From Acidimicrobiales bacterium (GTDB taxonomy: Bacteria; Actinomycetota; Acidimicrobiia; Acidimicrobiales; UBA8190): a DNA stretch of 64,000 bases. Positions 51,438 through 55,953 of the stretch are shown piece by piece. The first letter of the stretch is position 1; every line of letters begins with the position of its first letter. Below the pieces are notes generated by a model that made no database searches, was not told the DNA's origin, and saw nothing but the letters and a program-made list of their open reading frames with translations. Location: the NCBI GenBank assembly GCA_035531755.1, contig DATKSK010000038.1, positions 1-64,000 on the forward strand, given 5' to 3'. The position numbers and the translations under genes were made by a program.

Positions 51438-52094
51438 TTACTTCTTGGCCGGCTCGTAGAAGGGGTTGGCGCCGCTGGCGTGGTCGGTGACGTCGACGAC
51501 GGACGCGATCTCGGGGACGGCCTCGCGCAGTGCGACCTCGATCCCCTGCGACAGCGTGACCTTGGCGAGGCCGCAGCCCTGACACCCGCCGCTGAGACGG
51601 ACGTAGACCACGCTCTCCTCCACCGCCACCAGGTCGGCACGGCCCCCGTGCATGGCGATCGACGGGTTCACCTGGTCGTCGAGCACCGCCAGGATGCGCT
51701 GGGCGAGCTCGCCCGTGAGATCCCCCTGGCGGCGCTCGGTGAAGGCCTCGGGCCGCGGTGGGGTGTTCGGGTTCAGGATGACCAGCCCGCCCTCGCCCTC
51801 CTCGGACCAGTCGAGCCGGGCCCCCACCAGGCGGGCGGCGCTCGACTCGGGCACCACCACGGTCAGGCCGGCATCCTCGGCGACGGCGTCGCCGGCCCCG
51901 GCGTCAGACGCCGCCTGGAAGTAGATGTCATAGGTGTAGGCGCCGTCGCGGGCGCCGGTGACCTCGACCCACAGGGCCAGGTGCTCGGCGTCGGCCTCCT
52001 GGGCGCGGGCGTCCAGCACGACACCGCGTGCCGCGGGTGTCACGGTGAGTACAGCGGTGGTCGCGGTGTCCTCGACCGAGGCGTCCTGAGCCAT
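51438..52094 (-). CDS. NifU/NfuA-like iron-sulfur cluster carrier
   Basis: 218 residues with two domains. The N-terminal part (about 10-110) resembles the A-type/HesB-like degenerate domain of NfuA (LTVTPAARGVVLDARAQEADAEHLALWVEVTG) and lacks the usual cysteines. The C-terminal NifU domain (about 135-205) carries C-x-x-C in LSGGCQGCGLAKVTL. Two such subunits would hold one 4Fe-4S cluster. GGGGAGG lies upstream of the ATG as a ribosome binding site. It is divergent from the ATP-grasp gene with only 31 bp between starts. Cluster supply to the radical SAM protein at 53474 is plausible but inferred. Confidence 0.9.
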   Translation of the reverse strand: MAQDASVEDTATTAVLTVTPAARGVVLDARAQEADAEHLALWVEVTGARDGAYTYDIYFQAASDAGAGDAVAEDAGLTVVVPESSAARLVGARLDWSEEGEGGLVILNPNTPPRPEAFTERRQGDLTGELAQRILAVLDDQVNPSIAMHGGRADLVAVEESVVYVRLSGGCQGCGLAKVTLSQGIEVALREAVPEIASVVDVTDHASGANPFYEPAKK

Positions 52095-52114
52095 GGTGGC
52101 AACCTCCCCGCACC

Positions 52115-52120
52115 ATCATA
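52115..52120 (-). promoter_or_regulatory. -10 element of the NfuA-like gene, overlapping the divergent gene's promoter
   Basis: TATGAT on the minus strand precedes a ~13-nt leader containing the GGGGAGG site. On the plus strand CATCAT (52114-52119) precedes the ATP-grasp GTG by 6 nt. The two promoters would overlap and exclude each other. Confidence 0.4.
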
Positions 52121-52125
52121 GGTGT

Positions 52126-53379
52126 GTGGCCCGAGTACTCCTTCTCCTTCCTTCGGCCACGTACCGCGCCGCGGACTTCCTCGACGCCGCCCGGGCGCTC
52201 GGGGTCGAGGTCGTCGTCGGCACCGACGAGCCCCACGCCCTGAAGGCCGCCATGGGTACTCGCTCCCTCGAGGTCCCCCTGGGCGATCCCGCCGAGGCGG
52301 CCCGCCTGATCGCCGCCCACGACGCCGTGGCCCCCCTCGACGCCGTGGTGGCGGTCGACGACGCCGGCACCGTGGTGGCGGCGGCCGCCGGGGAGCTGCT
52401 CGGCTTGCGGCACAACCCCCCCGAGGCCGTCGCCGCGGCGCGCGACAAGCTCGCCATGCGCACCCGCCTGGCCGCTGCCGAGGTGCCCCAGCCGGCGTTC
52501 GCACCCCTCCCCGCGGATGCGGGGCCCGAGGAGGTCGCGGCCGTGGCCCGGCGGGTGGGCCTGCCGTGCGTGATCAAGCCGACGACCCTGTCCGGCAGCC
52601 AGGGGGTCCTGCGCGCCGACACGACCGACGAGGCCGTCGCCGTCGCCGCGCGCGTGCGGCGCATCGCCACCGCCGCCGGGGTGGCGACCGCCACCCCGCT
52701 GCTCGTGGAGCGGTTCGTCCCGGGAGCAGAGGTCGCGGTCGAAGGCCTGCTCGTGGCGGGTGAGCTTCGGCCCCTGGCCGTCTTCGACAAACCCGACCCC
52801 CTCGACGGGCCGGCGTTCGAGGAGACCATCTACGTGACCCCGTCACGCCTGGCCCCGCTCGATGCCGCCGCGGTGCTGGCGGCGGCGGCCGGGGCGACGG
52901 CCGCGCTCGGGTTGCGCGACGGCCCCGTACATGCCGAGGTGCGCGTCAGCGGCGGGCGGGCCTCGGTCATCGAGGTGGCGGCGCGGACCATCGGTGGCCT
53001 GTGCTCGCGCGCGCTGTCGTTCTCCACGGGTCGCTCGCTCGAGGCGCTCGTGATCGCCCATGCGCTGGACATGCCGCTCGGCGCCACCGCTGCCGTGGGG
53101 GCGTCGGGCGTCCTCATGGTCCCGATCCCGCGTGCCGGGGTCTTCGTCGGCGTCGACGGCGGCGTCGAGGCGTTGGCCGTCCCGGGCGTCACCGACGTCC
53201 AATTCACCGTGGCGCCCGGCCGCCGGGTGGCTCCTGTCCCCGAGGGGAACCGCTACCTCGGCTTCGTCTTCGCCCGCGATCGGACGCCCGAACGGGTGGA
53301 GCGCGCGCTGCGGCGGGCGCGGGCGGTGCTGGACGTCGACATCGACCCCGACGCGGGCGCGGGGCCACCCGCCTGCTGA
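52126..53379 (+). CDS. ATP-grasp family ligase, substrate unknown
   Basis: 417 residues. The N-terminal Rossmann-like part (MARVLLLLPSATYRAADFLDAARALGVEVVVGTD) is a pre-ATP-grasp domain. The ATP-grasp core spans about 100-300: RDKLAMRTRLAAAEVPQPAFAPL, LPCVIKPTTLSGSQGV with the ATP Lys and glycine loop, LLVERFVPGAEVAVEGLLVAGEL, and VHAEVRVSGGRASVIEVAARTIGG with metal-binding Glu. A C-terminal carboxylase-like domain follows. Such enzymes join a carboxylate to an amine or amino acid. It is not carbamoyl-phosphate or biotin carboxylase. It is followed 94 bp later by the CCAEP radical SAM gene; co-function is inferred from adjacency. Confidence 0.88.
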   Translation: MARVLLLLPSATYRAADFLDAARALGVEVVVGTDEPHALKAAMGTRSLEVPLGDPAEAARLIAAHDAVAPLDAVVAVDDAGTVVAAAAGELLGLRHNPPEAVAAARDKLAMRTRLAAAEVPQPAFAPLPADAGPEEVAAVARRVGLPCVIKPTTLSGSQGVLRADTTDEAVAVAARVRRIATAAGVATATPLLVERFVPGAEVAVEGLLVAGELRPLAVFDKPDPLDGPAFEETIYVTPSRLAPLDAAAVLAAAAGATAALGLRDGPVHAEVRVSGGRASVIEVAARTIGGLCSRALSFSTGRSLEALVIAHALDMPLGATAAVGASGVLMVPIPRAGVFVGVDGGVEALAVPGVTDVQFTVAPGRRVAPVPEGNRYLGFVFARDRTPERVERALRRARAVLDVDIDPDAGAGPPAC

Positions 53380-53473: not shown

Positions 53474-55009
53474 GTGCGCGTCCTGCTGGTGTCGACGTAC
53501 GAGCTCGGCCATCAGCCGCTGCACGTGGCCTCGCCCGCCGGTGCACTGGCGCGCGCCGGCCACGACGTGCGGTGCGCCGACCTCGCCGTCGAGGCGCTCG
53601 ACCCCGACACGCTGTCATGGGCGGAGGCGGTGGCGTGCTCGGTTCCCATGCACACGGCCATGCGCCTGGCGCGCACCGTGTGCACGGAGGTCCGCTCCCG
53701 GCGCCCGGACATTGCGCTGTGCCTCTACGGGCTCTACGCCGGGCTCGACGGCGTGCACGGCGCGGCGCCCGTGGCCGACGTCACCATCGCCGGGGAATAC
53801 GAGCCGGCGCTGGTCGCATGGGCCGACGACCTGGCGGGTCGAACGGGACGCACCGCCATGACGACCGGGGTCGGGGGCAGTGTCGGGACAGGCGGCTCGC
53901 GTACCGTCGTCGAGCTCGGTCGGGGCCACTTCGGGTTGCCCGCCCGCCACCTCCTGCCGAAACTGGAGCACTACGCCCGCCTGGCCGTGGGGGCCGAGCA
54001 CCGACTCGCCGGCTACGTGGAGGCGAGCCACGGGTGTGCGCACCGCTGCCGCCACTGCCCCGTCCCCGTCGTGTACGACGGGCGCACCCGCCTGGTCTCG
54101 GTCGACGCCGTCGTGGCTGACGTCGCCCAGCTGGTGGCCATGGGCGCCCGCCACATCACCTTCGGCGACCCCGACTTCCTGAACGGCCCCCACCACGCGC
54201 TGCGGGTCGTCGACGCCGTCCACGGCGCCTTCCCAGACGTGACCTTCGACGTCACCGCCAAGGTCGAGCACATCCTGCGCGACCGCACCGTGTGGACGCG
54301 TCTCGCCGCCGCGGGCTGCCTGTTCGCGGTGTCGGCGTTCGAGTCGGCCAGCGACGACATCCTCGTGCACCTGGACAAGGGGCACACCGCCGCCGAGGAG
54401 GTCGAGGCGGTGGCCGTCCTGCGCGCCGCGGGCATCGAGCCGCGTCCGTCGCTGCTCCCCTTCACGCCGTGGACCACGGCGGGCGACGTCGTCGACATCC
54501 TCGACCTCGTGGCGCGCTGCGACCTGGTGGGGAACGTCGACCCCGTGCAACTCGCCATCCGCCTCCTCGTGCCCCCCGGCTCGCTCCTCGTCACCTCCGG
54601 GACCCTGGCGGGCCGCGTGGGCGACTACGACGCCGAGCACCTGGGGTGGAGCTGGACGTCGCCCGATCCTCGTCTCGACGTGCTCCAGGAGCGGCTGGCC
54701 GTCTTGGCGGAGCGCGCCGGGACCGACGGGTGGCCCGCCCGGGAGGCCTACGACGCCGTGCGCGCCACCGCGGCCGCGGTACTCGGCGACGCCGGGCCCG
54801 GGCCGGCGCCCGCGCCCGAGGACCGTCTGCGCTCGTCCGTCGCGCCCGACGAGCGCCCGCGCCTCACCGAGTCGTGGTTCTGCTGTGCCGAGCCCAGCGG
54901 CGCGCAATTCGAATCGGTCCGGATGGTGGAACCGGTCCGGATGGTGGAACCGGTCCGGATGGTCGAGGCGGCACCGGTGGGCGAGCCCACCGCCGCAGGC
55001 GGGAGGTAG
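53474..55009 (+). CDS. Radical SAM protein with C-terminal CCAEP motif (CUAEP/CCAEP-tail type)
   Basis: 511 residues. Residues 1-~115 form a B12-binding-like Rossmann domain (MRVLLVSTYELGHQPLHVAS) without an obvious cobalamin DxHxxG. Residues ~180-400 are the radical SAM barrel with the cluster motif C-x-x-x-C-x-x-C (Cys188, 192, 195: HGCAHRCRHCPVPVV), and later FGDPDFLNG and AVSAFESASDDIL. Near the C-terminus SWFCCAEPS has Cys470-Cys471-Ala-Glu-Pro. I recall a radical SAM (seleno)protein family named for a CUAEP/CCAEP tail, with selenocysteine or cysteine at the second position; here the codons are TGC TGT, so Cys-Cys. After CCAEP comes an atypical 37-residue extension with VRMVEP repeated three times. 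Reaction unknown. A ribosome-binding GGGAGG at its 3' end serves the next gene. Confidence 0.9.
   Translation: MRVLLVSTYELGHQPLHVASPAGALARAGHDVRCADLAVEALDPDTLSWAEAVACSVPMHTAMRLARTVCTEVRSRRPDIALCLYGLYAGLDGVHGAAPVADVTIAGEYEPALVAWADDLAGRTGRTAMTTGVGGSVGTGGSRTVVELGRGHFGLPARHLLPKLEHYARLAVGAEHRLAGYVEASHGCAHRCRHCPVPVVYDGRTRLVSVDAVVADVAQLVAMGARHITFGDPDFLNGPHHALRVVDAVHGAFPDVTFDVTAKVEHILRDRTVWTRLAAAGCLFAVSAFESASDDILVHLDKGHTAAEEVEAVAVLRAAGIEPRPSLLPFTPWTTAGDVVDILDLVARCDLVGNVDPVQLAIRLLVPPGSLLVTSGTLAGRVGDYDAEHLGWSWTSPDPRLDVLQERLAVLAERAGTDGWPAREAYDAVRATAAAVLGDAGPGPAPAPEDRLRSSVAPDERPRLTESWFCCAEPSGAQFESVRMVEPVRMVEPVRMVEAAPVGEPTAAGGR
54917..54970 (+). repeat. Three 18-bp tandem repeats inside the radical SAM gene
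   Basis: Units at 54917-54934, 54935-54952 and 54953-54970 (GTCCGGATGGTGGAACCG; last copy changed in its 3' third) encode VRMVEP, VRMVEP, VRMVEA. The 18-bp period keeps the frame. Confidence 0.9.
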
Positions 55010-55014
55010 AGGAC

Positions 55015-55953
55015 ATGGGCGGTCGACAGTCGGCGACCCAGGGAACGACGGCGGCGGCCAAGGGCCGCCACGAGCCCTGGCACGGTGCCCCGGAAGGCTC
55101 GCACGAGTGGGTGAGCTTCCCGGATCCCGAGGAGGAGCGCACCTGGCTGTTCGACGTCACCTTCCTCGAGAGCCGGTGGACGTGCATCTTCGGCCAGGGC
55201 TGCCAGGGCGTCCTCACAGGCCCCGCTCCCGAGCTGGTGCAGGGTTGCTGCTCGTACGGGGCGCACTTCACCGGTGCCAAGGACGCCCGCCGCGTCCAGG
55301 CGGCGGCGGCCAAGCTCACGCCCGAGCAGTGGCAGTTCCACGGCAAGGCCCGCACCGCGGGGAAGGCCCGGCCCGACGTCGTCGTGCGTTCCAAGTCCGG
55401 CGACCTCACCACCCGCCTGGTGAAGGACGCGTGCATCTTCCTCAACCGTGTCGACTTCCCCGGCGGCCCCGGATGCGCGCTGCACCGCGCCGCGGCCGAG
55501 CAGGGCATCCCGCACCTCGAGCTCAAGCCGGACGTCTGCTGGCAGCTGCCGCTGCGCCGTGACGACGAGATCGCCGACGACGGCCACGTCACGTCGGTCA
55601 TCAGGCAGTGGGACCGCCGCGACTGGGGTGACGGCGGCTTCGAGTTCCACTGGTGGTGCACCGAGTCGCCCGAAGCCTTCGTGGGGACGCGCCCGGTCTA
55701 CGAGGAGCTCGAGGACGAGCTCGTCGCCATGGTCGGCAAGAAGATCTTCAAGCGACTCGTCCGCTACCTCCGGGCCCGCGACACGGCCCTCGGCCTGGCG
55801 GCCGCCAACGGGGCCGGCAACGGGGCCGGCAACGGGGCCGCCCGGACGGGGGCCCCGCTCGCCCCGGTGATGGTCCCGGCGGCGACGTCCGTCGCCGTCC
55901 CCGCGCCCGTGCGCCTGCCGCATCCGGCCGTCCGCAAGGCGCGGCCCTCCTGA
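55015..55953 (+). CDS. Cysteine-rich protein downstream of the radical SAM gene, function unknown
   Basis: 312 residues, no signal peptide. Eight cysteines lie in a compact 1-220 domain: WTCIFGQGC (57, 63), QGCCSYG (78, 79), KDACIFLNR (140), GPGCALHRAA (154), KPDVCWQLPL (175) and WWCTESP (215). The pattern, with CIFLNR..GGPGCALH..DVCWQLPLRR, recalls cysteine-cluster proteins of the YkgJ/DUF3109 kind that probably bind zinc or an Fe-S cluster. The name is offered tentatively. The C-terminal ~60 residues are low-complexity (GNGAGNGAGNG, Pro/Ala/Val). The ATG is 5 nt after the radical SAM stop with a GGGAGG site, so the two genes are surely co-transcribed. Confidence 0.82.
   Translation: MGGRQSATQGTTAAAKGRHEPWHGAPEGSHEWVSFPDPEEERTWLFDVTFLESRWTCIFGQGCQGVLTGPAPELVQGCCSYGAHFTGAKDARRVQAAAAKLTPEQWQFHGKARTAGKARPDVVVRSKSGDLTTRLVKDACIFLNRVDFPGGPGCALHRAAAEQGIPHLELKPDVCWQLPLRRDDEIADDGHVTSVIRQWDRRDWGDGGFEFHWWCTESPEAFVGTRPVYEELEDELVAMVGKKIFKRLVRYLRARDTALGLAAANGAGNGAGNGAARTGAPLAPVMVPAATSVAVPAPVRLPHPAVRKARPS

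What the first reader, a model, noticed from the sequence alone, without database searches (positions are those of the whole stretch)
54881..54886. Cys-Cys pair encoded TGC TGT where relatives reportedly encode Cys-Sec
In the remembered CUAEP form the second residue is selenocysteine (TGA). Here it is TGT, one base away from TGA. The position is thus probably a redox-active Cys acting as the sulfur version of a selenoprotein site.
Basis: partly seen in the sequence, partly recalled or inferred. Interest (0 to 1): 0.5.

Follow-up and report, generated by a model that had tools for sequence, protein, structure and literature searches.

The report
Cysteine version of a selenoprotein tail
A bacterial enzyme ends in a fixed cysteine pair whose second member is selenocysteine in many relatives; the exchange is real and has happened more than once, and the enzyme's nearest characterised kin makes an arsenic-containing antibiotic, which suggests what the pair may be for.

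Summary
TGC TGT at 54881-54886 encodes the Cys-Cys of FCCAEP near the C-terminus of a 509-aa radical SAM protein (53480-55009) of NCBIfam NF040546, "CUAEP/CCAEP-tail radical SAM (seleno)protein" (558.7 bits, cut-off 500), so the Cys/Sec alternation is already on record. I tested it on 98 distinct members: 41 have TGA at exactly this codon, 57 have TGC or TGT. TGA forms carry a SECIS-like hairpin 15 nt downstream (at least 6 of 7 pairs in 37 of 41; 0 of 57 Cys forms). SelA was found for 37 of 41 TGA and 23 of 57 Cys forms: TGA goes with the machinery, but the machinery does not imply TGA. The best tree needs 15 changes, 3 forced by well-supported branches. No SelA or SelB was found in this genome, and its clade is Cys in 22 of 23 rows, so TGT being one base from TGA says nothing. 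"Redox-active" is not shown. The closest characterised family by far is ArsL (arsinothricin synthesis), which also ends in a Cys pair and in 4 of 6 loci seen also sits near an ATP-grasp gene. I favour a substrate-holding tail in an ArsL-like enzyme; that is inference.

The parts
54881..54886 (+). TGC TGT, Cys468-Cys469 of the FCCAEP tail; the second codon is the Cys/Sec switch site
54854..54895 (+). conserved C-terminal tail RPRLTESWFCCAEP (residues 459-472)
   Evidence: E464 W466 C468 C469 E471 P472 invariant, P460 R461 L462 F467 A470 at 90% or more in 59 members; block means of pLDDT 92-93 for residues 461-480
53480..55009 (+). radical SAM protein, 509 aa, GTG start; NF040546 rSAM_CUAEP; CX3CX2C at C186/C190/C193; B12-binding-like N-terminal domain (under cut-off)
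54911..54963 (+). 18-bp tandem repeat (2.9 copies) coding VRMVEP units in the variable extension after the tail
   Evidence: residues after the pair number 11-53 in Cys forms, 11-31 in Sec forms
52093..53379 (+). ATP-grasp ligase of L-amino-acid-ligase architecture (ATPgrasp_N, ATP-grasp_4, LAL_C2, all over cut-off), 428 aa, directly upstream
   Evidence: related gene within 2 kb of the rSAM gene in 49 of 81 loci
51438..52094 (-). NfuA-like Fe-S protein, 218 aa, divergent
   Evidence: under the NfuA equivalog cut-off; related gene within 2 kb in 39 of 81 loci
55015..55953 (+). protein of unknown family, 312 aa (DUF3109 match under cut-off), directly downstream; relatives within 3 kb of the rSAM gene in 5 of the 80 named loci, all Cys forms

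Best explanation
C468-C469 is the sulfur form of a Cys-Sec pair on the C-terminal tail of a radical SAM enzyme. The Cys/Sec exchange is shown by sequence. [quoted passage not shown] The new amino acid would then be joined to another by the neighbouring L-amino-acid-ligase-type ATP-grasp enzyme. Sec would be a stronger ligand or nucleophile but dispensable, so the two have been exchanged more than once (direction not decided). Shown: family, TGA/Cys alternation, hairpin, machinery, gene pairing. Inferred: chemistry, acceptor, role of the pair.
For: NF040546 558.7 bits; second family ArsL 260.6 bits, third 39.6. TGA in 41 of 98 members at this codon. Hairpin (6 or 7 of 7 pairs) in 37 of 41 Sec vs 0 of 57 Cys forms, paired cells 92% vs 41%, with changes on both sides; mean z -1.39 vs 0.04. 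SelA 37 of 41 vs 23 of 57. Four ArsL proteins from plasmids end RCCLKC and their Cys pair falls in the columns of the CUAEP pair. An annotated ATP-grasp gene lies near ArsL in 4 of 6 ArsL loci looked at; of three scanned, all have ATP-grasp_4 over cut-off and two a LAL_C2 match under cut-off; phmmer relates each of the three to an ORF in 46-52 of 81 CUAEP loci. Tail at pLDDT 92-93. ArsL alone in E. coli makes hydroxyarsinothricin from As(III), ACP transfer being that paper's prediction (PMC8552651 passages); a review calls the ACP transfer shown (PMC12159101 passages; its primary paper was not seen).
Against: Kin of ArsM, ArsQ, ArsN1, ArsH, ArsC, aquaporin, the CobW-type GTPase and the MFS exporters of ArsL clusters occur in 0 of 81 CUAEP neighbourhoods at E 1e-6; arsenic-transporter kin in 1, ArsR kin in 2, so arsenic is not indicated as acceptor. 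ATP-grasp ligases are a large superfamily and the two sets are 22-24% identical. No ligase within 2 kb in 32 of 81 loci, some cut by contig ends, and none annotated within 8 kb in Thermomicrobium roseum. No ATP-grasp annotated within 7 kb of ArsL in Pseudomonas amygdali. The tail-to-cluster distance was not measured (no coordinates). The ArsL and CUAEP pairs are brought together by an aligner across a gap of about 50 residues.
Confidence: 0.45

Rival explanations
1. Redox tail: Cys-Cys/Cys-Sec forms a disulfide/selenylsulfide that shuttles electrons or protects the active site, like the C-terminal Gly-Cys-Sec-Gly of mammalian thioredoxin reductase (recalled).
For: Vicinal Cys-Sec near a C-terminus with invariant flanks; most prokaryotic selenoproteins are thought to act in redox reactions (start of the abstract of PMC9312934 in a search listing).
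Against: The three partners that recur most are a ligase, an NfuA-like protein and DUF169, none a known reductant; but most other recurring neighbour clusters were not annotated, so a redox partner is not excluded. The nearest characterised homologue works on a thiophilic atom.
Confidence: 0.25
2. The pair is a ligand set for an auxiliary metal site or cluster (or faces a cobalamin) rather than for the substrate.
For: NfuA-like gene within 2 kb in 39 of 81 loci; fold neighbours include the cobalamin radical SAM enzymes OxsB and TsrM.
Against: Only two thiol/selenol ligands in the tail; Pfam B12-binding under cut-off (25.8 vs 32.1 bits); top fold match AprD4 does not use cobalamin (recalled).
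Confidence: 0.2
3. TGA in the relatives is a real stop, or a sequencing error, and not Sec; the window simply has a longer tail.
For: No SelA was found for 4 of 41 TGA members, and none on the T. roseum plasmid (chromosome not searched).
Against: Of the four misses one assembly is 78% complete and two are small, 1.8 and 2.2 Mb.
Confidence: 0.03

Closest known systems
NCBIfam NF040546 rSAM_CUAEP, CUAEP/CCAEP-tail radical SAM (seleno)protein
   Same: Match of residues 1-477 to profile 1-466 of 468, 558.7 bits over cut-off 500; C-[C/U]-A-E-P tail
   Different: Nothing defining found; this copy has a repeat-bearing extension after the tail
ArsL, arsinothricin biosynthesis radical SAM protein (NF040542, RCCLKC tail)
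   Same: Profile match over residues 1-403 (260.6 bits), CX3CX2C, C-terminal Cys pair, ATP-grasp gene near ArsL in 4 of 6 loci looked at
   Different: Under the ArsL cut-off of 450; no arsM/arsQ/arsN kin around in 81 loci; two tail Cys instead of three; about 50 more residues before the tail; Sec forms exist
AprD4 (6fd2), radical SAM diol dehydratase
   Same: Best fold match, Z 26.2, rmsd 3.9 over 404 residues
   Different: 19% identity; alignment ends at residue 438, before the tail
Sao selenoprotein set (SaoC 'Cys-Cys-COOH selenoprotein', SaoD/DsrE)
   Same: A review names SaoC so and says Sec in SaoB/SaoC may bind metals (passage of PMC13188914); a gene of the cluster whose one scanned member is SaoD/DsrE family (NF040913) lies within 3 kb of the rSAM in 5 of 81 loci
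   Different: SaoC was not compared with this protein; no relation was tested

Membership tests
NF040546 CUAEP/CCAEP-tail radical SAM (seleno)protein | Score over the curated cut-off, nearly full length | tested here: met
   558.7 bits vs 500
NF040546 CUAEP/CCAEP-tail radical SAM (seleno)protein | C-terminal C-[C/U]-A-E-P | tested here: met
   FCCAEP
NF040546 CUAEP/CCAEP-tail radical SAM (seleno)protein | Radical SAM CX3CX2C | tested here: met
   C186, C190, C193 invariant in 59 members; Pfam Radical_SAM 49.6 bits
Selenoprotein (as such) | In-frame TGA with SECIS, and Sec machinery in the genome | tested here: not met
   TGT here; no SelA, no SelB over cut-off, best tRNA-Sec match 46.0 bits, gathering score 47; genome 96% complete
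ArsL (NF040542) | Score over the curated cut-off and RCCLKC tail | tested here: not met
   260.6 vs 450 bits; tail FCCAEP
ArsL (NF040542) | Location with arsM/arsQ/arsN genes | tested here: not met
   0 of 81 CUAEP loci including the window
ArsL (NF040542) | ACP transfer from SAM to As(III) | not testable with these tools
   needs enzymology
Cobalamin-dependent radical SAM enzymes | Cobalamin-binding domain | tested here: inconclusive
   Pfam B12-binding 25.8 bits, cut-off 32.1; fold matches include cobalamin enzymes and others

The most novel reading that the evidence does not exclude
The CUAEP/CCAEP enzymes, found in records titled as at least five phyla, make an unknown amino acid by moving the 3-amino-3-carboxypropyl group of SAM onto an element held by a Cys-Sec or Cys-Cys tail, and an ATP-grasp ligase turns it into a peptide: a hidden class of organo-element natural products parallel to arsinothricin, in which Sec and Cys have been exchanged several times as the substrate-holding residue.
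Probability: 0.3. Interest if true: 0.8.

Novelty: new member of a known kind. Interest (0 to 1): 0.45.

Why it matters
The Cys/Sec alternation itself is already in NCBIfam's family name. What this adds is a test of it (hairpin, machinery, at least three changes on well-supported branches and 15 on the best tree) and a lead to function: kinship with ArsL and a similar kind of ligase partner. With many Sec and Cys homologues at one fixed position, the family is a natural experiment for asking what selenium buys there. If the ArsL analogy holds, it also points to an uncharacterised group of element-containing peptides, mostly in uncultured bacteria but also in cultured Thermomicrobium and Thermogemmatispora.

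Tried and rejected
Rejected: 'TGT is a trace of recent loss of TGA'. TGC is just as close, TGT is 11 of 59 Cys codons, and the window's clade of 23 rows (support 85, not starred) is Cys except L110. Rejected: 'SelA presence predicts TGA'. 23 of 57 Cys members are in SelA genomes, and 3 of 3 further Cys genomes. Baseline: 234 of 396 genomes of the phylum sample match SelA; in that sample 13 of 14 TGA genomes have SelA (not G393) and 1 of 7 Cys genomes (G118); the divergent FCCAAP genome G080 has none, and the tails of G046 and G070 could not be read. Restricted to well-supported branches only 3 independent pairs remain, without significance; the Fisher p of 3e-7 treats relatives as independent.

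tRNA-Sec: over the gathering score in 12 of 14 TGA genomes (not G017, G393; G140 and G170 only just) and in 2 of 7 Cys genomes (G118, G036). G036 has a strong tRNA-Sec but no SelA found; unexplained. SelB over cut-off: 12 of 14 TGA genomes (not G170, G393), 1 of 7 Cys genomes (G118).

Led nowhere: no paper in the library holds CUAEP, CCAEP, NF040546, or arsinothricin together with ATP-grasp. The two Haft selenoprotein papers are not held, so whether they describe this family is unknown. PMC13188914 does not hold CUAEP or NF0405 in its main text. No PDB chain matched a Priestia ArsL by sequence. The structure tool gave no coordinates. The second structure job was not used.

Full report
What is there. 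At 54878-54895 (+) the window reads TTC TGC TGT GCC GAG CCC, in frame in a 509-aa protein that starts at GTG 53480 and ends at 55009. The Cys pair is C468-C469. The protein matches NCBIfam NF040546, CUAEP/CCAEP-tail radical SAM (seleno)protein, with 558.7 bits against a cut-off of 500; the second family is ArsL (NF040542) with 260.6 bits and the third scores 39.6. Pfam sees Radical_SAM over cut-off and a B12-binding domain under cut-off.

Is the second Cys a Sec position? In a sample of 396 genomes of the same phylum, 20 have a match over the NF040546 cut-off. I aligned 21 members (the window and 20 loci; L022 is slightly under the cut-off; the second copy of G032 and the truncated or divergent L023-L025 were left out): 14 have TGA and 7 a Cys codon at column 469. 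The divergent L025 reads FCCAAP. Together these are 101 proteins with second codon TGC 48, TGA 42, TGT 11. Three pairs identical over residues 21-200 were reduced to one each, which leaves 98: 41 Sec and 57 Cys.

SECIS-like hairpin. In the TGA members a stem of 7 pairs starts 15 nt after the T of TGA, with loop AGUUN in 35 of 41. Six or seven of the 7 pairs form in 37 of 41 TGA members and in 0 of 57 Cys members; paired cells are 92% against 41%. Sliding the 3' arm by 1-3 lowers the TGA value to 32-60%, and shuffling 3' arms among TGA members gives 77% on average (maximum 82%). Pair types change on both sides (G-C, A-T, C-G) at several positions. The mean folding z-score of the 48-nt stretch is -1.39 for TGA and 0.04 for Cys members. 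The position was chosen after looking at the folds, so the contrast with the Cys homologues, which code a similar peptide, is the fairer control.

Machinery. SelA was sought in the genomes of these members. Counting fragments in G170 and G471 as present and weak matches in G444 (24 bits) and G448 (60.5 bits) as absent, SelA is found for 37 of 41 TGA members and 23 of 57 Cys members. The four TGA members without it are L019 (genome 78% complete), L082, L108 (a near twin, L116, has SelA) and L122. In the window's genome (96% complete) no SelA, no SelB over cut-off and no tRNA-Sec over the gathering score (46.0 against 47, amid many matches of that size) was found. The best tree (quick method, SH-aLRT support only), built without the tail and rooted on four ArsL proteins, needs 15 changes between Sec and Cys, of which well-supported branches force 3; the direction is not decided. 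The window sits in a clade of 22 Cys and 1 Sec rows.

A cultured example. The Thermomicrobium roseum DSM 5159 plasmid NC_011961.1 has a CDS annotated as a CUAEP/CCAEP-tail radical SAM protein that stops at TGA right after TESWFC. AEP follows in frame, with a hairpin whose stem starts at nt 17 (z only -1.27). Of five further loci that are not L129 again (L147-L150, L152), two have TGA and three Cys; all five genomes have SelA. SelA was not on the T. roseum plasmid; its chromosome was not searched. The annotated protein is probably truncated.

Neighbourhood. Across 80 named loci plus the window (flanks up to 6 kb, some cut by contig ends), a gene of the ATP-grasp cluster lies within 2 kb of the rSAM gene in 49 of 81, of the NfuA-like cluster in 39, of the DUF169 cluster in 11. 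The families were read from representatives: L103 and the window for the ligase, L072 and the window for the NfuA-like protein, L087 for DUF169, L065 for SaoD/DsrE. The SaoD/DsrE cluster lies within 3 kb in 5 of 81. Going by record titles, the ligase link is seen in Actinobacteria, Chloroflexi (and Thermogemmatispora), Nitrospirae and KSB1, and the NfuA link also in Poribacteria. The T. roseum plasmid has no annotated ligase within 8 kb. Most other recurring neighbour clusters were not annotated. The window has NfuA-like, ligase and rSAM genes in a row.

Link to ArsL. Four ArsL-family proteins from plasmids end in RCCLKC. Aligned with CUAEP proteins, their Cys pair falls in the same columns, across a gap of about 50 residues. 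ArsL loci of Priestia megaterium, Alicyclobacillus, Pantoea and Klebsiella hold an annotated ATP-grasp gene; that of Pseudomonas amygdali has none annotated within 7 kb, and for Priestia filamentosa only 2 kb was seen. The Priestia, Pantoea and Alicyclobacillus ligases all match ATP-grasp_4 over cut-off; LAL_C2 is matched under cut-off in Priestia and Alicyclobacillus and not in Pantoea. They are 22-24% identical to the window's ligase, and the Alicyclobacillus one picks up an ORF in 52 of 81 CUAEP loci. At E 1e-6 no kin of ArsM, ArsQ, ArsN1, ArsH or ArsC occur in the 81 loci; an arsenic-transporter relative occurs in 1 and ArsR relatives in 2. ArsL alone in E. coli makes hydroxyarsinothricin from As(III), and transfer of the 3-amino-3-carboxypropyl group of SAM is predicted there (passages of PMC8552651); a review states the transfer as catalysed by the radical SAM enzyme (passages of PMC12159101).

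Structure. The AlphaFold2 model from 59 sequences has mean pLDDT 93.0 and pTM 0.90; residues 461-480, with the pair, have block means of 92-93, while the extension after them falls to 76-59. The tail is therefore predicted as ordered, but its place relative to C186/C190/C193 is unknown. The best fold matches include AprD4, MgmA, OxsB, TsrM and MiaB.

Verdict. The codon argument is uninformative, the two-way machinery rule fails one way, and the redox role is unproven. The most informative new lead is the ArsL kinship: the pair may hold a thiophilic substrate atom. That is inference, at confidence 0.45.

Noticed in passing
L136:7935-9371 (NC_011961.1, Thermomicrobium roseum plasmid): Annotated CUAEP protein ends at an in-frame TGA after WFC; AEP and a hairpin follow; likely truncated annotation of a selenoprotein.
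   Followed up: partly
L128, L129, L147, L149, L151, L152: Cys forms, two of them Thermogemmatispora by title, with extra Cys pairs in a long extension after CCAEP (ends such as ..SSGCCSVGH).
   Followed up: no
window 54911-54963: 18-bp tandem repeat coding VRMVEP units soon after the tail, in the stretch where Sec forms carry their hairpin and beyond.
   Followed up: partly
window 55015-55953: Downstream gene of unknown family with a GCCSYGAH motif and several Cys; relatives near the rSAM gene in 5 of 80 named loci.
   Followed up: partly
L065, L066, L073, L079, L101: Gene cluster whose scanned member (L065) is SaoD/DsrE family (NF040913) beside the rSAM gene, hinting at a link with Sao selenoprotein systems.
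   Followed up: partly
L074-L076, L087, L091, L093, L122, L131 and others: DUF169-type gene (Pfam match read from L087) within 3 kb of the rSAM gene in 19 of 81 loci, across phyla.
   Followed up: partly
G036 (Cys form, L018): Strong tRNA-Sec match (77.9 bits) but no SelA found and a Cys tail: decaying Sec system or assembly gap.
   Followed up: no
L099: Contig titled Bifidobacterium breve sits beside L017 in the tree (end branches 0.006 and 0.019), a genome of the window's own class: probably a mislabelled or contaminated MAG.
   Followed up: no
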